A stretch of 23,937 bases of DNA from a virus. The notes under the pieces were generated by a model. That model had not been told where the DNA came from. It did not search any database and saw nothing but the letters and a program-made list of their open reading frames with translations. The position numbers were made by a program, and so were the translations under genes. Positions within the stretch are counted from its first letter, which is position 1, and every line of letters starts with the position of its first letter. Positions 1 through 19,040 of this stretch are shown here, piece after piece. The stretch spans positions 1-23,937 of the IMG/VR virus record IMGVR_UViG_3300048589_001599; one strand, 5' to 3'.

Positions 1-1482
1 ATGACCCCACAGGAACTCAAGAACAGCATCTTGCAGCTTGCAATTCAGGGCAAGCTGGTGGAACAGCGCGCGGAAGAGGGCACGGGAGAACTGCTGTACC
101 GTGAGATTTTGGCGGAGAAAGCGAAGCTTGTAAAGGCGGGAAAGATCAAGAAAGAAAAGCCTCTGCCGGAGATTGCAGAGGATGAGAAGCCGTTTGATAT
201 CCCGGAGAGTTGGGCGTGGGCTAGATTAAAGACAATTGCCACGAAAATCACAGATGGTACTCACAACTCACCACCGAATTCAGAATTTGGTGAATTTATG
301 TATGTTACCGCAAAAAACATCAAAAACGCTGGCGTTTCAACTGCTGGGATTACTTTCGTTTCAGCAAGTATTCACAAGCAAATATATGCAAGATGCAACC
401 CTGAGTTGGGCGACTTACTGTTAATCAAAGATGGTGCAACAACAGGAACCGTTACAGTTAACGATTTAACAGAGCAATTTAGCATGTTGTCGAGTGTGGC
501 ATTGATAAAACTGCCCGATTGTGTTGACAAGTGGTATTTAGTATATATGCTTCGTTCAAATTTGCTTTATAAAGAGTTAAGAGCGCAAATGAAAGGAACC
601 GGCATCACACGTATTACTTTAACGCAAATAGAACCCTTAGTTTTCCCCCTCCCGCCCCTCGCCGAACAAAAACGTATCGTCGCCAAGATCGAGGAACTCA
701 TCCCCTATATCGACCGCTACGAACAGGCTTGGCGTAAGCTGGAGGACTTCAACAAACGTTTCCCCAGCGACATGCAAAAATCCATTCTACAGTTTGCGAT
801 TCAGGGCAAGCTTGTTGAGCAGCGCCCGGAGGAAGGCACGGGCGCGGATTTAATTCCGCTCTGTAAGGCAGATAAGGCACGTGCTATAAATGATGGAAAA
901 TGCAAGAAAGAAAACTTTCATGGTGCAATAACTAACGAAGATCACATTCCATTTGATATACCAGATTCATGGGTTTGGATGTTCATATCGGATGTTGCGT
1001 TTTTCCAAGAAGGGCCTGGGATTATGGCTATAGATTTCAGAAATTATGGCGTCCCATTGATAAGAATAGCCGGGATGCAAAAAGACTCCGTTACGCTAGA
1101 TGGATGTAACTATCTTGATGAGAACATGGTTGAATCAAAGTGGTCTCACTTCAGGCTCGACGTAGGAGATATAGTAATTAGTACAAGTGCTTCAATGGAC
1201 AAAGTTGCTGAAGTCGATGATTCATGTTCGGGTTCTATTCCATATACTGGCCTTATTAGATTCAAGATGTATGGCGGTATTGACAAGAATTATTTTAAGT
1301 TGTTTATTAAATCTCCTTTTTACACGAAGCAAGTTGATGAACAAAAAGCGGGCGGAACAATTAAGCATTACGGACCGAGTCACTTAAGGAAAATGGTAAT
1401 ACCTCTCCCTCCCCTCGCCGAACAAAAACGCATCGTCGCCAAGCTCGAAGAAATCCTACCTCTTTGCGAAAAGCTGAAATAA
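1..1482 (+). CDS. hsdS: Type I restriction-modification specificity subunit (HsdS)
   Basis: HsdS is the DNA-recognition subunit of a type I restriction-modification complex. It binds HsdM and HsdR and fixes the bipartite target sequence. The 493-residue protein has the normal two-repeat design. Each half opens with a helical repeat (ILQLAIQGKLVEQR near 10-23; SILQFAIQGKLVEQR near 261-275). A target recognition domain follows, starting at PFDIPESW (64-71) and PFDIPDSW (317-324). Each half ends in PLPPLAEQKRIVAK (about 216-229 and 468-481), the conserved coiled-coil spacer that sets the gap between half-sites. Both target domains are AT-richer than the conserved parts, as is usual for swapped domains. 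The ATG is the first base of the window and the N-terminus matches the family start, so the gene looks complete. The partner hsdM would lie to the left and hsdR is not seen. The RT operon follows in the same direction. Confidence 0.93.
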   Translation: MTPQELKNSILQLAIQGKLVEQRAEEGTGELLYREILAEKAKLVKAGKIKKEKPLPEIAEDEKPFDIPESWAWARLKTIATKITDGTHNSPPNSEFGEFMYVTAKNIKNAGVSTAGITFVSASIHKQIYARCNPELGDLLLIKDGATTGTVTVNDLTEQFSMLSSVALIKLPDCVDKWYLVYMLRSNLLYKELRAQMKGTGITRITLTQIEPLVFPLPPLAEQKRIVAKIEELIPYIDRYEQAWRKLEDFNKRFPSDMQKSILQFAIQGKLVEQRPEEGTGADLIPLCKADKARAINDGKCKKENFHGAITNEDHIPFDIPDSWVWMFISDVAFFQEGPGIMAIDFRNYGVPLIRIAGMQKDSVTLDGCNYLDENMVESKWSHFRLDVGDIVISTSASMDKVAEVDDSCSGSIPYTGLIRFKMYGGIDKNYFKLFIKSPFYTKQVDEQKAGGTIKHYGPSHLRKMVIPLPPLAEQKRIVAKLEEILPLCEKLK

Positions 1483-1638: not shown

Positions 1639-3039
1639 ATGCGATTTGTTGATGAGATCCATAAAGCAGTAAGGCATCAGTATGCTCTTGACACGAATAG
1701 TACAAAAACAGAAGACGAGTTAAGGATTATTGAGGAAGCCATTTGTACTGCCATTTCAGCCGACACCTTTGATTTCTCGAATTCCGAATCAATCGTTTTA
1801 AAGCAAAGCGGTGGTAAGCGGAGATTTGTAAAACGGTATACAGATATTTATTCGCCAGAAAGCGTACTCTGTCAGTGCATCAAGCAAATTCTTGACCGAT
1901 CTTTTAGAGTAAAGTATCCCAACCGAAACAAATCAGTTAGAACTTTATTTGACACATTAAAAGCTGTTCGACAAATGGCAGACTTTACAATTATCAAGTA
2001 TGACTTCAAGGATTTTTTTAACTCGGTTTCATCGCCTTATGTATATGAGAAGTATTTGGCAGAAAATTTATCAGACCGATTTGAAGCTGATTTAGTCAAA
2101 CGCTTCGCCAAAGAAACGAAGTATGCCTACGCAGGCTTTAGTACTTCCAATGTAATCTCTGAGATAATAGCACAGAGATTTGATTCCGAGGTTAGTCTTG
2201 CGTTTGATGGCAAATGTCTTCTTATCTTCGATAGATACATTGACGATAGCATCATTATAGTAAACCAACACATCGAAGAAGTCGAGTGTCGCAAACTATT
2301 GGAGGATGCCCTCAATAAAGTATTTCATGATAATACCATTGCGGAGCTTCCAAAATGCAAAACGCATTTCAATGGTTCTAAGTTTAGATATGTTTCTCGT
2401 CGCATGTTGACTGGCCGTCAGAAGAGCATCGATTACTTAGGGTACGAATTTAAATTCAAAACACAAAATGACAAAACAGAAATTAAATTTGGAATTACAC
2501 AGGCAAAAATTGATAAATACAATAAACGAATTGATGAGATAATCCGGCTTTATAGCAATCCTGTCGGGCATAATGGCGAAGCGAATCCTGATTATCAGAA
2601 AATGGAGTTGCTACGACATCGTATTGCTGCTTTTACTTCAAGATCGGTCTATCGAACAAACAGATTCAATACAATAGTATGGAAAACTAAGGGATTTATC
2701 GGGAATTACGGTGAACTACGGTATCTTCTCGACGGTCCATTGATTGATGCAAGAACAAAAACATTTTTGGAGCGTATGGTAGAAAACGCTTTCCAACGTG
2801 CTCTATTACCGATTCCCTATTTTTTAAGAGGTTCAACTGGAAAAAGCGGGTACAATTTACTCGATAATATGAAGACAAATAAGACTCTTCTTTTTGTAGA
2901 TAAAATTGGATACTCAAAACGCGCTCTCGAAAATTTGTGCGCTCAAATTGACATAAACACAGTCGATAGAAACGGGAGAACACGCGGGTATGGTCAACTA
3001 GTTCGCGAGTATCTGATTAAAGTTAAGGTTGGGTATTAA
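1639..3039 (+). CDS. drt3a: Defence reverse transcriptase, UG3-like (DRT type 3 subunit A candidate)
   Basis: This is a reverse transcriptase of the UG/Abi type. In the 466-residue form the palm motifs are clear: motif A YDFKDFFNSV (121-130) with metal ligand D122, motif B GFSTSNVISEIIA (166-178), the catalytic YIDD (200-203), and IDYLGYEF (264-271) in the thumb-proximal part. About 190 residues follow without a domain I recognise. There is no maturase or HNH domain and no retron VTG motif. An upstream in-frame ATG at 1633 lies only 2 nt after GAGG (1627-1630), so ATG 1639 with 8-nt spacing is preferred. Another RT follows in the same direction. Known DRT3 systems pair UG3 and UG8 RTs with a non-coding RNA and protect against phage, apparently by making repetitive DNA. 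RT identity is firm; the UG3 assignment rests on length and the pairing. Confidence 0.8.
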   Translation: MRFVDEIHKAVRHQYALDTNSTKTEDELRIIEEAICTAISADTFDFSNSESIVLKQSGGKRRFVKRYTDIYSPESVLCQCIKQILDRSFRVKYPNRNKSVRTLFDTLKAVRQMADFTIIKYDFKDFFNSVSSPYVYEKYLAENLSDRFEADLVKRFAKETKYAYAGFSTSNVISEIIAQRFDSEVSLAFDGKCLLIFDRYIDDSIIIVNQHIEEVECRKLLEDALNKVFHDNTIAELPKCKTHFNGSKFRYVSRRMLTGRQKSIDYLGYEFKFKTQNDKTEIKFGITQAKIDKYNKRIDEIIRLYSNPVGHNGEANPDYQKMELLRHRIAAFTSRSVYRTNRFNTIVWKTKGFIGNYGELRYLLDGPLIDARTKTFLERMVENAFQRALLPIPYFLRGSTGKSGYNLLDNMKTNKTLLFVDKIGYSKRALENLCAQIDINTVDRNGRTRGYGQLVREYLIKVKVGY

Positions 3040-3218
3040 TAACGAAGCGGCAAGGTTGCCCTCGCCGCTCCGGAACAATTGCCGTAGCTATGTTCAAAAC
3101 GCAGTGTCGTATCACCGAAATGATCGTACAAAACGCCGATGATGTGTGTACGGTTGCCCGCACTGCAAGTGAATTCGACTTGCTTATCTATATAATAATT
3201 CAAATGGGGGAAAAGTCA
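3040..3218 (+). ncRNA. Candidate DRT3-type non-coding RNA between the two RT genes
   Basis: The 179-nt gap is dense in complementary arms: CGGCAA (3048-3053) with TTGCCG (3079-3084); AGCGGC (3046-3051) with GCCGCT (3064-3069) as an alternative; GCAGTG (3101-3106) with CACTGC (3161-3166), enclosing CGTACA (3125-3130) with TGTACG (3147-3152); and GCAAGT (3165-3170) with ACTTGC (3178-3183). A short dinucleotide run TGTGTGT (3143-3149) lies at the loop/stem edge of the inner hairpin. DRT3 is known to use a non-coding RNA, and as I recall it carries an AC-repeat template for GT-repeat DNA. The run here is the complement on the plus strand, so either the strand or the role is uncertain. Frame 3 is open from 3090 through this gap, but the start at 3219 fits better. 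Confidence 0.45.
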
Positions 3219-5237
3219 ATGGCATGGAAGGGACTTGAGCGAAATAAGCTTGATTACATTTTGACAGATTTGCTGCCTGTTGAGCTATCTGAGCTATTTT
3301 CTTTTCGTCCCTTCTATGATTTTCTTACTCGGAAAGAGCAGCAAAAAACTTTATCCTTACTCTCTGAGGAGCTAAGAAAAGTAAATGCAAAATCAACTGA
3401 AGTCATGTTTAAGTCCAAATGGGCAACAGTACCATTCAAGTATAATATTCTCAAGGGGAATGATTCATTCCGCGAGATGAGTGTTATGCAACCACTATCT
3501 GCACTCAACTTGTTTCTTTTCTTGGAGTGTTATCAAAAGGACATTCTCAATTTCTTCGATAACCATCATTGCTTCTCAATTCGGTATCATAGAAAAAACT
3601 CTGAGCTCTACTATAAGACTCGTTCAAAACGTGCTGTTGAGTACTTCTCCATTGATATGCGCCGTAGGGTTGGTAAGGCTGCCGTACAGCAAACCGGCAG
3701 TTATTTCAAAATCGCGAATTTTGAATCAATCAATTCCTTTGCAGACTCACGTTTGTGGAGATTTGCCAACTTTCAATTCAAACATTACGCCAAAATGGAT
3801 TACAAGTCTTGTTTTGATAGTGTATATTCTCACGTATTTAAATGGATCATCGAACGAAATGTAATTGATTCAAAAGACGCTAGCAACTCGAATTTGTTTA
3901 TTACATTAGATCGAATATTACAGAATATAAACGGTAGGCAATCAAATGGACTTATTGTAGGCCCAGAATTTTCCCGAATGGTAGCAGAGGTTTTGTTGCA
4001 GCAAATTGACACTGAAGTAAAGTACAAACTATCGAATGTCGGATTGATGCACAAAACGAACTATACTGTTTTCAGATATGTTGATGATATTTTTGTTTTT
4101 GCCGATTCACAAGAGAACTTAAATTATATTACAAGAATTTTCACCGAAGTTGGAAGTCGCTACTTGCTGCGCCTAAATGAACTCAAACTATACAAAGGGA
4201 CAACCCCTTGTTTGCCAAAGAAATGGTTAGAAAGAACGCGTATTCTCGCCGATGTCATCGACGGCTTCTTCGATAACCGAAAAAAAGCTGAATATGATGC
4301 TTTGCCTGAAGAGAGCAAATATATTGTTAAAAAAGACTATTTCCCTGTTGATCGGGTTAAAGATGAGTTTATCAATCTTATGAATGATTTCCCTGACGAC
4401 AGACGAACTATAGTGTCATTTTCGCTATCAGCCTTGTTGAACAATATTGGTAAAAAAAAGGATGGTTATCGTCTTTTCGGCAATGGCAAGGCTAATAAAG
4501 CCAGGTTACTAATTGATTTAGGTTTCTTTATATACGCTTTTTCAGCGACATTTGATTCAACGCGTAAGTTGATATCAATAATAGCCTATATGAATGACGA
4601 ATTGCACTTTAGCGAGAAAGATAGTCGAGAAAACAGGAACTTGCAGGATACCATTCGAAGATATTCTTTTGTCTTCCAGCGCGGTAATCTACCTGACTTG
4701 TGTGATTGGTTTGCATTCTTTGCCGAGTACAATTTAAACTTGGATTCTAGTACGGAAAAGAGAATAATCGCTAACGCAGAAAAAGATAATAACCCAATAA
4801 CATGGGCAAATATTCTTTCATATTCGCGGTATTATAATCCGTATTTTGTTGCGACTTTGGCCAAAGTTGAAAAAATAATAGATACGCAAATTTCAAAAAT
4901 GTCGCGCAAAGAAGCTATGATGCAGAACGAATTCTGGTATGTATTAGTATTTCATAACTGTCCGCATATAAGTAATACACTAAGAGCAAAGGTCGACTTA
5001 TTTATAAACGAAATAAAAACACTAGCAGCTTCAGGATGTCCCGCAGATCAAGCTGCGTTATTAGTCTGCAATTTCTTATGCCAAATGTCCCCTGGAGGTA
5101 ACAAGCCTCGAGAAAGCTTCTACGATTGGAGCGAAAATAGAAGTATCTCAGAGCAAATTACATATCGAACATTTCAGCGTACAATATTCAAGCGCTACAG
5201 AGGATCACGAAATAATCTTTATGCAAGTATTGAGTAG
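3219..5237 (+). CDS. drt3b: Defence reverse transcriptase, UG8-like (DRT type 3 subunit B candidate)
   Basis: This is the second, larger UG/Abi-type reverse transcriptase. From ATG 3219 it is 672 residues. Motif A is AKMDYKSCFDSVYSH (191-205) with D194, motif B is GLIVGPEFSRMVAEVLL (244-260), and the catalytic box is RYVDDIFVF with YVDD at 287-290. About 190 residues precede the palm. Roughly 330 residues after the thumb are mostly helical, with no domain I recognise. GGGGGA (3206-3211) lies 7 nt before ATG 3219. An in-frame ATG at 3090 would add 43 residues but has no good ribosome site and runs through the structured gap, so it was not used. Paired with the 466-residue RT, this matches the UG3+UG8 layout of DRT3. 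Its 3' end overlaps the last recombinase gene by 33 bp on the opposite strand, so its final residues may come from a prophage junction. Confidence 0.78.
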   Translation: MAWKGLERNKLDYILTDLLPVELSELFSFRPFYDFLTRKEQQKTLSLLSEELRKVNAKSTEVMFKSKWATVPFKYNILKGNDSFREMSVMQPLSALNLFLFLECYQKDILNFFDNHHCFSIRYHRKNSELYYKTRSKRAVEYFSIDMRRRVGKAAVQQTGSYFKIANFESINSFADSRLWRFANFQFKHYAKMDYKSCFDSVYSHVFKWIIERNVIDSKDASNSNLFITLDRILQNINGRQSNGLIVGPEFSRMVAEVLLQQIDTEVKYKLSNVGLMHKTNYTVFRYVDDIFVFADSQENLNYITRIFTEVGSRYLLRLNELKLYKGTTPCLPKKWLERTRILADVIDGFFDNRKKAEYDALPEESKYIVKKDYFPVDRVKDEFINLMNDFPDDRRTIVSFSLSALLNNIGKKKDGYRLFGNGKANKARLLIDLGFFIYAFSATFDSTRKLISIIAYMNDELHFSEKDSRENRNLQDTIRRYSFVFQRGNLPDLCDWFAFFAEYNLNLDSSTEKRIIANAEKDNNPITWANILSYSRYYNPYFVATLAKVEKIIDTQISKMSRKEAMMQNEFWYVLVFHNCPHISNTLRAKVDLFINEIKTLAASGCPADQAALLVCNFLCQMSPGGNKPRESFYDWSENRSISEQITYRTFQRTIFKRYRGSRNNLYASIE

Positions 5238-6788
5238 AGAAAACTCGAGTCCACCGTTTTTTTGAATCGTGATGCTATTTACAGCCATTTTCCACACCCC
5301 CTCATCAAACTCCACCAGCGGCCCCGCCATTTTCAATACCTTGTAGAACGCATCCAGCTCGCGCTTTCTTGCTCTCCGTTGCTCCCGTTGCTCCCCGATC
5401 TCAGCAATCTGCTCCTCAAGCGCCCGGCTTTGAGCCAAGAGCTCTGCGTATCGATCGTCGTAAGCGGCTTGTTCGATCAAAGCTCGTGCGTAATCGTCGA
5501 CCACCTTGCGCATCAAAGCGGATACAGCTTCTAGCTCTTTACCCGCAGTGGCTTCCCTTTCTTCCAAATCACGCGAATCGGTTAGCGTCGCAATGAACAT
5601 CTTGATGTCAGTCAGAACCTGATCCTTATTCGCAATCAACCGATTTATTTCTTCAACAAACGCCGCCTTGATCTGATCTTCAGTCACGTGCGGCGTTTTG
5701 CATGGTTCACCATTGTCGTATTTGTGTTGGCAACGCCAAATCACCGTCCGATACTTGTCGTTGCTATGCCACACCTTCCTACCATAGTAGCTGCCGCACT
5801 CCCCGCAGATGATCTTGCTGGAAAAGCACCCGCTCCTGCCAACATAGCGAGCTTCACGGCGGCGTTTCAATTCCTGCTGCACCTCGTCGAACACCTCGGA
5901 AGAAACGATCGCCGGGTGGCTCTGCTCTACATAGTATTGGGGCAGTTCTCCTTCGTTCCGCTTCATTTTCTTGGTCAGAAAGTCAACGCAGAAGGTTTTC
6001 TGGAGCAGCGCGTCCCCTTTGTACTTTTCGTTGGTCAAGATGCTCTCAACCGTGCCCGGTTGCCAGCGAGGCTTTCCTGCCGGAGAAAGTATGCCGATGG
6101 TTTCCAGCCGCTTGGCGATACCGGAAGGCATGAGGCCTTCCAGAAAAAGCGAATAGATCAAGCGAACCGTCTTTGCCTGCTCCTCAACGATCTGCGGTAG
6201 CCCTTCCGCCCCTTTTTCATATCCAAGGAACTGTTTGTATGGCAGGTACACCTTGCCCTCTTCACACTTCGCACGCTTGCCCCAAGCAACGTTCTCGCTG
6301 ATCGAGCGGCTCTCCTCCTGTGCCAGAGAGCTCATAATCGTGATCAGCAGCTCTCCCTTAGAATCCATGGTGTAGATATTCTCTTTCTCGAAAAACACCT
6401 CTACGCCCTTCTCCTTGAGCTGGCGAACCGAAGTCAATGTATCGACCGTGTTCCTAGCGAAGCGGGAAATGCTCTTCGTTATGATCAAATCAATCTTCCC
6501 TGCAATTGCATCCGCGATCATTCGGTTGAATCCGTCACGTCTCTTTGTGTTCGTTCCGCTGATGCCCTCATCCGTATAGACCTCAACCATCGTCCAATCC
6601 GGGTTAGCGGTGATCTGGCGGGTATAGTAATCTACCTGTGCTTCAAAGCTCGTAAACTGCTCATCGCTATCGGTCGATACCCGCGCGTATGCCGCAACGC
6701 GCCGTTTCGCAAGAGGTCGAATCTGGTTCTTTCCTTGCCCCACCGATGTTCGCTCAATTTTCGTTACCCGTTTCTGGATCGCTTCCAT
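5205..6788 (-). CDS. Large serine recombinase (second of a pair, prophage integration)
   Basis: A large serine recombinase cuts and rejoins DNA at attachment sites through a covalent 5'-phosphoserine link. The 527-residue protein has the resolvase catalytic domain first (about 30-175) with RVAAYARVST, nucleophile S38 and the nearby R36. A recombinase domain follows (about 190-300). Then comes a zinc ribbon: CGECG near 323, with WRCQ and GEPCK. A long coiled coil (about 410-490) carries many E/R/A residues. Start ATG 6788 has AAAGGAG about 10 nt upstream and overlaps the end of the preceding recombinase by 35 bp, so the two are probably translationally coupled. It is the last prophage gene before the DRT locus, and its tail overlaps drt3b convergently. 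The family usually has its attachment site next to the integrase. Confidence 0.92.
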   Translation of the reverse strand: MEAIQKRVTKIERTSVGQGKNQIRPLAKRRVAAYARVSTDSDEQFTSFEAQVDYYTRQITANPDWTMVEVYTDEGISGTNTKRRDGFNRMIADAIAGKIDLIITKSISRFARNTVDTLTSVRQLKEKGVEVFFEKENIYTMDSKGELLITIMSSLAQEESRSISENVAWGKRAKCEEGKVYLPYKQFLGYEKGAEGLPQIVEEQAKTVRLIYSLFLEGLMPSGIAKRLETIGILSPAGKPRWQPGTVESILTNEKYKGDALLQKTFCVDFLTKKMKRNEGELPQYYVEQSHPAIVSSEVFDEVQQELKRRREARYVGRSGCFSSKIICGECGSYYGRKVWHSNDKYRTVIWRCQHKYDNGEPCKTPHVTEDQIKAAFVEEINRLIANKDQVLTDIKMFIATLTDSRDLEEREATAGKELEAVSALMRKVVDDYARALIEQAAYDDRYAELLAQSRALEEQIAEIGEQREQRRARKRELDAFYKVLKMAGPLVEFDEGVWKMAVNSITIQKNGGLEFSLLNTCIKIIS

Positions 6789-8094
6789 AAGTAAGTGACT
6801 CCTTTATTGCCAGTGATCTTTCTTTTGCTGCCTGTTTCATTTCGTCCGTCCAGCTTTCCGCGCGGGAACGGTCTTTCCATTGATACTCGTATCGGTGCCC
6901 ATCAGCGAACACAAAAAGAAGTATGTTCGGCGCAGGAACCTCTATATGATCGATTCGCTTTGATAAGGGGGTCTCATCAAAATGCTCCGTCCCAAGCGCC
7001 TCTGCGACAGCACACAGCAATATCTCTTCCGGGATTTGCTTCGCTGGACAGGCGCTTTTGCCGTGCTCTAAGTAGGTAGCGCATTGCCAGCTTATCTTTC
7101 CCTTTGTCGTTTTTCGCTGAAATTTCTTACCGCAAATGCCGCAGACGATTTTGCCTGTGAATGGATATCGTACGTTGATCGGCTTCCCGGGTTTGTTTTT
7201 CTCACTCGCGCGCGCAAGCAGCTCCTGCGCTTTTTTGAATGTATCCATATCGATAATCGCTTCATGTGATTGCTCCACATAGAAGGTCGGTAGTTTGCCC
7301 CTGTTCCGTTTCTTGTTCTTATTCAAGTAGTCTGAAATGTAGGTTTTTTGCAGTAACGCGTTCCCGGTATATTTCTCGTTTGCCAGAATCTCCCTCACAT
7401 GTTTGGGTGTCCATGCGACATGGGTCAGCGTCGTTTCTTCTCTCGTATTGAGATTTCGCGCAATTGAAACACTCGATTCTCCGGAAATGTAAAGGCCGAA
7501 AATCTCGCGTACAATCTCAGCCTGCCTTGTTTCGATCTGAATCTCTTTCCCGCGTATGATGTAGCCGTACATGGCGCGCAATCCGACGATCTCGCCCTGT
7601 TCCATCTTCTTTCGAATCCGCCACTTGCAGTTCTCGGAAACCGAGCGGCTCTCTTCCTGCGCAAAAGAAGAGAGGATGGTAAGCATCAGCTCGCCATCCC
7701 CTGAACCGCTGTGAATGTTCTCCCGTTCAAAGAACACATCCACACCTTTTTGCTTCAACTCTCTCAGAACGTTCAGCGTATCGACCGTGTTTCGAGAGAA
7801 TCGGCTGAGCGATTTTGTGATCACCATGTCGATCAGACCGGCATTGCAATCCGTGATCAGTCGCTTGAATTCAGGACGATCGCTTTTTGTGCCGGTGATG
7901 CCCTCGTCGGCGTAGACCCCGATATACTGCCATTCGGGATTGCGTTGGATATGGGATCTGTAATAACCAATCTGCGCAGCCAGAGATTCGATCATGGATT
8001 CTTTTTCGATCGACACCCTTGCATATGCCGCAACACGCTTTCTGGGCTGGATTGCAGGAATCGTCGGTTTTCTTGTGTGAATGATCCTTGCCAT
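6754..8094 (-). CDS. Large serine recombinase (first of a pair, prophage integration)
   Basis: The 446-residue protein belongs to the same family as its downstream neighbour but is clearly diverged from it. The resolvase domain (about 18-165) begins with RVAAYARVSIEKES, giving nucleophile S28 with R26. The recombinase domain covers about 175-285. A zinc ribbon has CGICGKKF and WQCATY followed by SACPAKQ near 310-355. It lacks the long coiled coil of the second enzyme, ending instead in a short tail with IEVPAPNILLFVFADG and a charged helix. ATG 8094 has AGGAGG close upstream. Such pairs are common in clostridial prophages and integrative elements, where both proteins may be needed for integration or excision. 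That division of labour is an inference here. Confidence 0.9.
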   Translation of the reverse strand: MARIIHTRKPTIPAIQPRKRVAAYARVSIEKESMIESLAAQIGYYRSHIQRNPEWQYIGVYADEGITGTKSDRPEFKRLITDCNAGLIDMVITKSLSRFSRNTVDTLNVLRELKQKGVDVFFERENIHSGSGDGELMLTILSSFAQEESRSVSENCKWRIRKKMEQGEIVGLRAMYGYIIRGKEIQIETRQAEIVREIFGLYISGESSVSIARNLNTREETTLTHVAWTPKHVREILANEKYTGNALLQKTYISDYLNKNKKRNRGKLPTFYVEQSHEAIIDMDTFKKAQELLARASEKNKPGKPINVRYPFTGKIVCGICGKKFQRKTTKGKISWQCATYLEHGKSACPAKQIPEEILLCAVAEALGTEHFDETPLSKRIDHIEVPAPNILLFVFADGHRYEYQWKDRSRAESWTDEMKQAAKERSLAIKESLTYGSDPETGNEN

Positions 8095-17459: not shown

Positions 17460-19040
17460 TTAGTTATTGCGATATCTCGCCGTATCTGCTTTCTTGCGAC
17501 TATCGACCAAAGTCTTTGCTGCTTTTATGAAGTCACATTCGAGTATAATATTCTCGGCTGATACACAAAACACAACATCTTTCTGGAACACTCGTTTAAT
17601 ATCAACAGTTCTTCGAATGGAGTTATATGCTGCCTCGGATGCCACAAATGCAATTTCTGCGCCTGAACAACCTGTTAAGTATTTGCTTACAAAAGAATCT
17701 CTATCAAAAGATTTATCGACAGGCATCTTTTCAGTATGTATGCGAAATATGGCCTTGCACCCTTCAATTGATGGACGCTGAATTTCTATTACGTAATCAA
17801 ATCTCCCAGGACGTCTAACTGCTTCGTCTATCATATCTATCCTGTTTGTGGATGCAATAGCGCAAACTTGGCTCGTATCATCGATCCCATCCATTAGCGT
17901 TAATAACTGATTCACCACGGTTGCCATCAACGGATTCCCATCTGCATCACGAGTCGACGATATTGAATCAAACTCGTCAAAATAAATAATCGTTGGGTTG
18001 TTTCTTTTTGCTTCATCGAATATTTTCCTAAGGTTAGCCTCAGACTGTCCAACATACTTATTTAGTATCTCTGGACCGTTTACTGATATAAAATGCGCGT
18101 TGATTTCGTTTGCAACCGCCTTCGCGATCAGTGTTTTCCCGCATCCTGGCGGTCCATATAGTAGAATCCCCTTGTGTGGCTTAATATTATAATGTTCGAA
18201 TATTGCTGGCGCAATTAGCGGAAGTTCAATTACTTCTCGAACCTGTTGAACTATATCGTCGATCCCACCAATATCACTAAAAGTTACCGAAGGTACATTT
18301 TTCTCATCGCCATCTTGGTGGTCGTCCCTCTCACTGGAAGATCCCATTGAGATTGAAATGCCTAAACCACCTTCATAATCATAAGCATGTTTCTCATGTG
18401 GCCTCACACCAATTACTTCGGTTTGTTTCATACCGACCGGAGCTTCTCTATATTTATATTCCCATTCGCAGCTATTATCGTCTGTTACAATAATCTTCTC
18501 AGGCAGAGTCAAAAGCGCACTCTCCAACCTACTCAAAGCGAAGAACCTGCACGCCTCAACATGTTTTTCAGCAACTTCTTTTTTTAGTTGCTCGAGAATT
18601 TTGTCTTTATCTACAAGCCATTCCTCATCTTGAAAACGACCAAATTCATACCAGTTCAAATTCGAACGATGATAATATGATGCGCGACGTAGAGCTATTG
18701 AGTTGATATATCTACATCCCCAACCGGTCTCGTCATAACAATACTCATTCGAAATTACACATTCACTGCATCGCTTTTCGCACTCAAATATCGCCAAGAT
18801 TGCTTCAACTGAATAAAACGATGCCCTATTACCATTTATATAGTATTCTGTTTTGCTCCAACTTTTGATTACTGTAAGAATACTTTTGATGTTCTGTTGT
18901 TTTTCCCGCAGATCATCTAAACTAAGAGTCAGAGTATTTTTTGATTTCTCCTGCTCATACGTTTCAAGAAATCTACAACTTTCACATAGTGATTCGTAGT
19001 ATTGAGAAGACGATTTGTAAAAAACAATCTTAATAATCAT
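17460..19040 (-). CDS. AAA+ ATPase (Cdc48/FtsH-like) with cysteine-rich N-terminus, phage moron candidate
   Basis: The 526-residue protein has one classical AAA+ module at its C-terminus. Its parts are FSDIGGIDD (254-262), Walker A GPPGCGKT (296-303), pore-loop YVG (329-331), Walker B IIYFDEFD (351-358), sensor-1 N399, arginine fingers in RRPGRFD (409-415), and [11 protein letters not shown] in the lid. It should remodel or unfold a protein in a hexameric ring. Residues 1-240 match nothing I know. They contain C19-x2-C22 and the group C87, C91, C94, C101, C109 (EKRCSEC, then GWGCR), which could bind zinc or an Fe-S cluster. No protease domain is present. It interrupts the usual chaperone-tape measure order, is visibly AT-richer than both, and has its own predicted promoter and terminator. 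Defence, superinfection exclusion or host modulation are possible roles; none is shown. Confidence 0.85.

What the first reader, a model, noticed from the sequence alone, without database searches (positions are those of the whole stretch)
1639..5237. Two consecutive defence reverse transcriptases: a DRT type 3 system in a Bacillota genome
Two RT genes in tandem, one about 466 residues with YIDD and one about 672 residues with YVDD, are rare. They match the UG3+UG8 layout of antiphage DRT3. Both catalytic Asp pairs are intact, so both may be active. The 330-residue C-terminal part of the second RT is unassigned. Known DRT3 work describes paired RTs making complementary repeat DNA; whether this distant version does so is open.
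Basis: partly seen in the sequence, partly recalled or inferred. Interest (0 to 1): 0.68.

Follow-up and report, generated by a model that had tools for sequence, protein, structure and literature searches.

The report
DRT3 defence with inverted RNA gene
This is a bacterial anti-phage system of a known kind (two reverse transcriptases thought to write matching strands of a repeat DNA), but in this Clostridia-type branch the small RNA that templates one strand appears to sit between the two enzyme genes and to be read from the opposite DNA strand, a layout I found in none of the standard systems examined here.

Summary
In detail: two intact RT genes lie in tandem (466 aa, YIDD; 672 aa, YVDD). 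They are DRT3: the best profile hits are Drt3a (1.5e-35) and Drt3b (4.4e-121), and RT2 matches the solved Drt3b structures. Both score below NCBIfam's equivalog cut-offs, so the pair is divergent. Seven relatives carry the same pair, and all eight form one supported clade.

RT2 keeps the residues reported to gate poly(dC-dA) synthesis (E22, R71, R241) and a near-terminal Tyr.

The new point is the ncRNA. Canonical DRT3 genes abut or overlap, and the ACACAC-bearing ncRNA lies downstream in sense. Here the genes are about 180 nt apart and no ACACAC lies in sense nearby. The gap instead carries, on the MINUS strand, a sigma-70 promoter overlapping the drt3b start, a five-hairpin RNA with 5'-ACACACAUCAUCGGC, and a terminator ending at the drt3a stop. 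Promoter and terminator hairpin recur in all eight loci. The ACACAC/CACACA template is in seven; phage SE-1 has only ACACA there. Twenty-eight of 43 base pairs change on both sides, and wobble pairs (32 G-U against 4 A-C) favour the minus strand.

Verdict: a DRT3 branch with a relocated, inverted ncRNA gene and probably the same chemistry. No RNA or DNA product has been measured.

The parts
1639..3039 (+). drt3a (UG3, Class 2) reverse transcriptase, 466 aa, YIDD; alternative in-frame ATG at 1633
   Evidence: PADLOC Drt3a 1.5e-35; NCBIfam Drt3a 98 bits, below its cut-off of 200; predicted fold closest to DRT9 RTs, E 9.7e-11
3219..5237 (+). drt3b (UG8, Class 1) reverse transcriptase, 672 aa, YVDD, with helical C-terminal half and C-terminal ...LYASIE
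   Evidence: PADLOC Drt3b 4.4e-121; PDB 26cz 1.6e-32 and 9z6y 2e-27; E22, R85 (=R71), R253 (=R241), F199 (=F187), YVDD all conserved
3034..3185 (-). predicted ncRNA gene, about 150 nt, five stem-loops, encoded antisense between drt3a and drt3b; start and end approximate
   Evidence: covariance model recovers all five training loci and L058, which was left out (9.2e-07); 28 of 43 pairs with changes on both sides, 94% of cells paired
3135..3149 (-). predicted RT template segment, RNA 5'-ACACACAUCAUCGGC-3' (ACACAC at 3144-3149)
   Evidence: ACACAC/CACACA on the minus strand in the gap of 7 of 8 loci and on the plus strand in none
3192..3219 (-). predicted sigma-70 promoter of the ncRNA: -35 TTGACT (3214-3219, overlapping the drt3b ATG), 16-nt spacer, -10 TATTAT (3192-3197)
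   Evidence: 2 mismatches, shuffle p = 0.004; same placement in the other seven loci
3034..3072 (-). predicted intrinsic terminator: hairpin 3043-3072, then a T-rich tail across the drt3a stop codon
   Evidence: hairpin fully paired on the minus strand in all aligned sequences (G-U 10, A-C 0); 52 T against 21 T in the 12 nt beyond the hairpin on minus versus plus strand, 8 loci
1..1482 (+). flanking gene: type I restriction specificity subunit (HsdS), defence-island context
   Evidence: PADLOC Specificity_I 2.3e-134; Pfam Methylase_S
5205..8094 (-). two overlapping large serine recombinases at the edge of an adjoining siphovirus-type prophage; their 3' end overlaps the drt3b 3' end by 33 bp
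   Evidence: Pfam Resolvase/Recombinase; phage structural genes follow

Best explanation
This is a DRT3 anti-phage system of a distinct, mainly Clostridia-type branch whose ncRNA gene has been moved from downstream of drt3b into the drt3a-drt3b gap and inverted. A minus-strand promoter overlapping the drt3b start codon drives an RNA of about 150 nt that ends at a terminator at the drt3a stop codon (inferred from sequence). Drt3a (Class 2 RT) copies the RNA's ACACAC segment again and again into poly(dT-dG). Drt3b (Class 1 RT) makes poly(dC-dA) with no nucleic-acid template, gated by E22, R71 and R241(253) and primed from the C-terminal Tyr668. The strands anneal, and build-up of the double-stranded repeat halts the infected cell when the host nuclease (RecBCD in E. 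coli; AddAB is the likely counterpart here) is blocked. Supported by sequence: both RTs, intact catalytic sites, the gate residues, and the conserved minus-strand promoter, RNA fold and terminator. Inferred from EcoDRT3: the products, the priming, the duplex and the abortive infection.
For: Family. Gate residues: E22, R71, F187, R241 equivalents and the YxDD are conserved in all eight clade members, with mechanism from PMC13174585. Canonical layout: in five plasmid DRT3 loci the genes overlap or abut (gap 0 to -11) and ACACAC lies in sense 50-222 nt downstream of drt3b. In all eight clade loci the gap is 140-289 nt, and no ACACAC/CACACA occurs in sense within the gap or 400 nt either side; seven of eight carry it on the minus strand in the gap, SE-1 having only ACACA there. 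In L003 the upstream and downstream gaps are only 32 and 50 bp, leaving no other room. Minus-strand promoter at the same place in 8 of 8, single-locus shuffle p from below 0.0005 to 0.0575; the best plus-strand site in the same stretch is worse in every locus. Structure: 28 of 43 pairs change on both sides, 0 of 500 shuffles reach it. Strand: G-U 32 against A-C 4 on minus; a strand-symmetric helix search gives 10 against 3; alifold energy -48.6 minus against -33.1 plus, and the plus-optimised fold has more A-C (13) than G-U (7).
Against: No transcript, cDNA or defence phenotype was observed. Only eight loci were found, six of them close. In phage SE-1 the gap motif shrinks to AUACACAUCAGCGG (ACACA only), the covariance model scores it at E 1.9, and a second minus-strand ACACACATGGCGG lies downstream of its drt3b. 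The model gives no hit in L006. The more distant L144 has only TACACAA in a 112-nt gap. L006 lacks the near-C-terminal Tyr (ends LAWGSI), and the window's Tyr is five residues from the end rather than within the last three. Both proteins score below the NCBIfam cut-offs. The covariance model finds nothing in canonical loci, so homology of the two ncRNAs is unproven.
Confidence: 0.85

Rival explanations
1. The gap encodes a sense-strand RNA (processed from the operon mRNA) whose GUGUGU/GAUGAU segment templates a different product, for example poly(dA-dC), so this branch makes other DNA than EcoDRT3.
For: The 15-mer GCCGATGATGTGTGT is invariant in the plus strand of the window, L001 and L003, and hairpins also fold on the plus strand.
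Against: Wobble pairs, folding energy, T-tails and promoter placement all favour the minus strand. A sense GUGUGU template would give poly(dC-dA), the same strand that Drt3b's conserved gate residues predict for Drt3b, so no duplex would form.
Confidence: 0.06
2. The conserved gap is only a regulatory region (operon attenuator, or bidirectional promoter and terminator), and the real ncRNA lies elsewhere, beyond the prophage insertion or upstream of drt3a.
For: In the window drt3b is cut off from its former downstream flank by the recombinase gene. The window has an inverted repeat upstream of drt3a (1508-1607). SE-1 has a second ACACAC downstream.
Against: The upstream repeat is not conserved and that stretch folds no better than shuffles (z 0.42). 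L003 has only 32 and 50 bp of outer gaps. No sense ACACAC occurs within 400 nt on either side in any of the eight loci. The gap RNA has strong covariation around a conserved ACACAC segment.
Confidence: 0.07
3. The pair is another UG combination, or decayed RTs, not a working DRT3.
For: Scores below NCBIfam equivalog cut-offs for both proteins; about 25-27% identity to canonical Drt3b.
Against: The next-best RT families score far lower for RT2 (Drt6 2.2e-29 against Drt3b 4.4e-121). All catalytic and gate residues are intact in eight divergent loci, which implies purifying selection.
Confidence: 0.03

Closest known systems
EcoDRT3 (Drt3a/UG3 + Drt3b/UG8 + ncRNA; PMC13174585, and Deng et al. 2026 as reviewed in PMC13314766)
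   Same: Two tandem RTs, Drt3a then Drt3b; catalytic YxDD in both; Drt3b gate residues E22, R71, F187, R241; near-C-terminal Tyr; helical C-terminal half; an RNA with an ACACAC segment.
   Different: ncRNA between the genes and antisense instead of downstream and sense; genes about 180 nt apart instead of touching; no cross-hit of the ncRNA model to canonical loci; Tyr five residues from the end; proteins only about 25-30% identical.
Canonical plasmid DRT3 loci (Zymomonas, Bacteroides, Enterobacter, Vibrio, Novosphingobium; L008-L012)
   Same: Same gene order, same conserved Drt3b residues (Vibrio has E22D).
   Different: drt3a/drt3b overlap or abut, and sense ACACAC lies 50-222 nt downstream of drt3b.
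DRT9/DRT10 (Class 2, ncRNA-templated repeat synthesis)
   Same: The window's Drt3a model is structurally closest to DRT9 RTs; a ncRNA with a short repeat template.
   Different: Single RT, no Drt3b partner; other templates (poly-dA or other repeats, per PMC13174585 and PMC12632851).
Class 1 UG RTs without ncRNA (AbiK, Abi-P2, DRT4)
   Same: Drt3b resembles them in sequence; protein-primed, untemplated synthesis.
   Different: No ncRNA-templated partner RT.

Membership tests
DRT3 | Drt3a (UG3) and Drt3b (UG8) RTs in one locus | tested here: met
DRT3 | intact RT catalytic motifs in both proteins | tested here: met
   YIDD and YVDD; upstream Asp (D194) in Drt3b
DRT3 | Drt3b residues E22, R71, R241 that gate dA/dC incorporation | tested here: met
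   E22, R85, R253 in the window; conserved in all eight
DRT3 | C-terminal priming Tyr (Y666 in EcoDRT3b) | tested here: inconclusive
   Tyr668 of 672 in the window; present near the end in 7 of 8, absent in L006
DRT3 | ncRNA with ACACAC template encoded near the RTs | tested here: met
   predicted on the minus strand in the gap; 7 of 8 loci; transcription not shown
DRT3 | ncRNA downstream of drt3b in sense orientation (described layout) | tested here: not met
   recombinase gene overlaps the drt3b end; no sense ACACAC in the gap or 400 nt either side in eight loci. A layout feature, not a chemical requirement.
DRT3 | NCBIfam equivalog score for Drt3a/Drt3b | tested here: not met
   98.4 against 200 and 247.1 against 350 bits: divergent members
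DRT3 | poly(dT-dG) and poly(dC-dA) products, duplex accumulation, phage defence | not testable with these tools
   needs wet-lab work
DRT3 | Drt3b hexamer / 6:6:6 complex | not testable with these tools
   Drt3b model too poor in the RT domain (pLDDT 50.8)

The most novel reading that the evidence does not exclude
Putting the ncRNA gene antisense inside the operon makes it a built-in switch: the drt3a-drt3b mRNA is fully complementary to the ncRNA, and operon and ncRNA polymerases meet head-on, so ongoing host transcription would keep the template RNA sequestered or scarce. Phage interference with transcription would free it and start DNA synthesis. EcoDRT3's dependence on GreA (PMC13174585) fits a transcription link, but this is speculation.
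Probability: 0.15. Interest if true: 0.75.

Novelty: new variant of a known kind. Interest (0 to 1): 0.58.

Why it matters
DRT3 is a recently described example of a protein acting as template for a DNA sequence. This branch is far from EcoDRT3 (about 25-30% identity) yet keeps both the ACACAC template and the protein gate residues, although the RNA gene has moved and flipped. That supports the pairing of RNA-templated TG and protein-templated CA as the selected trait and the gene layout as free to change. Practically, ncRNA searches that look only downstream of drt3b (as in PMC13174585) would miss this branch, and a clone made by that rule could be mis-trimmed. The antisense layout also raises a testable regulatory question.

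Tried and rejected
Inverted repeat upstream of drt3a (1508-1607) as the ncRNA: not conserved in L001 and folds no better than shuffles. Rfam: no hit in the window. Downstream ncRNA: no room in the window, no ACACAC in sense. Sense-strand reading of the gap: worse on wobble pairs, energy, T-tail and promoter. RT2 start at 3090: not shared by homologues. AlphaFold2 of Drt3b from three sequences: RT domain unusable, fold search uninformative. IMG/VR scans with Drt3a/Drt3b profiles and the 15-mer GCCGATGATGTGTGT added only L003 (one contig under several ids) and the distant L144. Whole genome of the host: not available, as the window is a virus record. Phage insertion breaking drt3b: rejected, because the C-terminus ...LYASIE matches L001.
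Full report
Observation. RT1 spans 1639-3039 (466 aa, YIDD) and RT2 spans 3219-5237 (672 aa, YVDD). PADLOC ranks Drt3a first for RT1 (1.5e-35) and Drt3b first for RT2 (4.4e-121). NCBIfam agrees, but both scores are below its equivalog cut-offs (98 against 200 and 247 against 350 bits), so these are divergent members. RT2's best solved relatives are 26cz and 9z6y, both Drt3b. 26cz is annotated as a SUMO fusion of an RNA-directed DNA polymerase; its numbering with an offset of 108 places E22 and R241 exactly, which is how I identified it as EcoDRT3b. A moderate-confidence model of RT1 (pLDDT 63) is closest to DRT9 RTs, which are also Class 2.

Known mechanism. PMC13174585 reports that EcoDRT3a copies an ACACAC segment of a ncRNA, encoded downstream of drt3b, into poly(dT-dG). 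EcoDRT3b makes poly(dC-dA) with no nucleic-acid template: E22 and R241 gate alternating dA and dC, R71 contributes, and Y666 primes. The strands form duplex DNA, whose build-up leads to abortive infection when RecBCD is inhibited. PMC13314766 reviews the parallel work of Deng et al.. Those are the authors' results, not mine.

Relatives. Starting from L001 (Clostridia MAG) I collected L003 (IMG/VR), L006 (MT836158, fecal phage contig), L007 (Erysipelothrix phage SE-1), and three genomes, L055, L057 and L058. All seven carry drt3a followed by drt3b. They are rare: one to three hits per 137-399 genomes searched, the query's own source genome included. In maximum-likelihood trees of either protein the eight form one group, apart from five canonical plasmid DRT3 loci and L056, at 100/100 support. 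The programme warns of long branches.

Active site. Every clade member keeps the equivalents of E22, R71, F187, R241, the upstream catalytic Asp and the YVDD. In the window these are E22, R85, F199, R253, D194 and Y287-D290. A Tyr lies at 668 of 672. Canonical proteins have it within the last three residues; L006 lacks one near the end.

The ncRNA. In the five canonical loci the genes overlap or abut (gap 0 to -11) and ACACAC occurs in sense 50-222 nt downstream of drt3b. In the eight clade loci the gap is 140-289 nt, and no ACACAC/CACACA occurs in sense in the gap or within 400 nt outside. L003 has only 32 bp before drt3a and 50 bp after drt3b, so the gap is the only space there. The gap DNA is strikingly conserved, with the 15-mer GCCGATGATGTGTGT invariant in the first three loci compared. 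On the minus strand this reads ACACACATCATCGGC.

Four signs point to the minus strand. First, a sigma-70 promoter lies there in all eight loci with the -35 box on the drt3b start codon, up to a perfect TTGACA-N17-TATAAT in SE-1. Single-locus shuffle p-values run from below 0.0005 to 0.0575; they are not independent because the loci share ancestry. The best plus-strand site in the same stretch is worse in every locus. SE-1's -35 box sits a few bases differently relative to the ATG, so the match is not merely a conserved start-codon context. Second, the last hairpin is followed by a T-rich tail on the minus strand (52 T against 21 T in 12 nt over eight loci), clearest in SE-1 (TTTTTT) and L006 (ATTTTTAT); L057 is the exception. 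Third, wobble pairs: on the minus strand the consensus helices hold 32 G-U and 4 A-C cells. A strand-symmetric search gives 10 against 3. Even the fold optimised on the plus strand holds more A-C (13) than G-U (7). Fourth, consensus energy is -48.6 on minus against -33.1 kcal/mol on plus.

The structure itself is well supported: 94% of cells paired, 28 of 43 pairs with changes on both sides, 0 of 500 shuffles reaching either value, and slid controls at 36-44% paired. The alignment was fitted to the model, which inflates these numbers somewhat, but L058, left out of the model, was recovered at 9.2e-07 in the expected place and strand. The RNA is SL1, SL2, the single-stranded ACACAC(A)UCAUC segment, SL3, SL4, then the terminator SL5.

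Weak spots. SE-1 has only ACACA in its gap, a marginal model hit (E 1.9) and a second minus-strand ACACACATGGCGG downstream of drt3b. The model does not hit L006, whose promoter, ACACAC and terminator were read by eye and script. L144, a more distant pair, has a 112-nt gap with a TTGACA box, TACACAA and a terminator, and is equivocal. No RNA or DNA was measured. The literature searched describes the ncRNA only as downstream. The main paper retrieved 250 nt downstream of each operon to seed its model, then searched 1 kb around Drt3b homologues with it, and never mentions antisense or Bacillota. The library lacks many subscription papers, including Deng et al. and Mestre et al., so prior notice of this layout cannot be excluded.

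Verdict. The added finding is a branch of DRT3 whose template RNA is relocated between the RT genes and inverted. I put the same chemistry as EcoDRT3 as most likely, since both halves of the code (RNA ACACAC, protein E/R/R) are kept. Whether the antisense layout has a regulatory role is open.

Noticed in passing
window 5205-5237: The prophage's large serine recombinase gene overlaps the drt3b 3' end by 33 bp, and its last residues (after about 518) are not shared with 82-88% identical recombinases elsewhere, suggesting the prophage attachment site lies at the drt3b stop codon and leaves Drt3b intact.
   Followed up: partly
L056 (G180:C257) 1525-1901: A more distant Drt3b has its Drt3a-like RT partner divergently oriented; between them a long inverted repeat (GTGGGTCTAGTATA...TATACTAGACCCAC) encloses a segment with ACACA on the Drt3a strand: possibly a third DRT3 layout.
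   Followed up: partly
window 1-1482; L003 654-3968; L006 231-2042: DRT3 of this branch sits next to restriction genes: HsdS in the window, type I HsdR ending 32 bp before drt3a in L003, a GmrSD_N protein in L006.
   Followed up: partly
L055 886-2019; L006 6062-7003: A DUF2971 protein lies directly beside the DRT3 genes in two of the eight loci, before drt3a in one and after drt3b in the other.
   Followed up: no
L007 and L001: In Erysipelothrix phage SE-1, DRT3 lies between the endolysin and integrase genes, annotated 'hypothetical' and 'DNA binding protein'; in L001 it follows what look like holin and lysozyme genes: phage-carried DRT3.
   Followed up: no
window 17463-19040 (-): A 526-aa CDC48/PAN-like AAA ATPase lies among siphovirus tail genes, next to the tape-measure gene; role unknown.
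   Followed up: no
L006 drt3b C-terminus: Ends LAWGSI without the otherwise conserved near-terminal Tyr, so it may use another priming residue.
   Followed up: no
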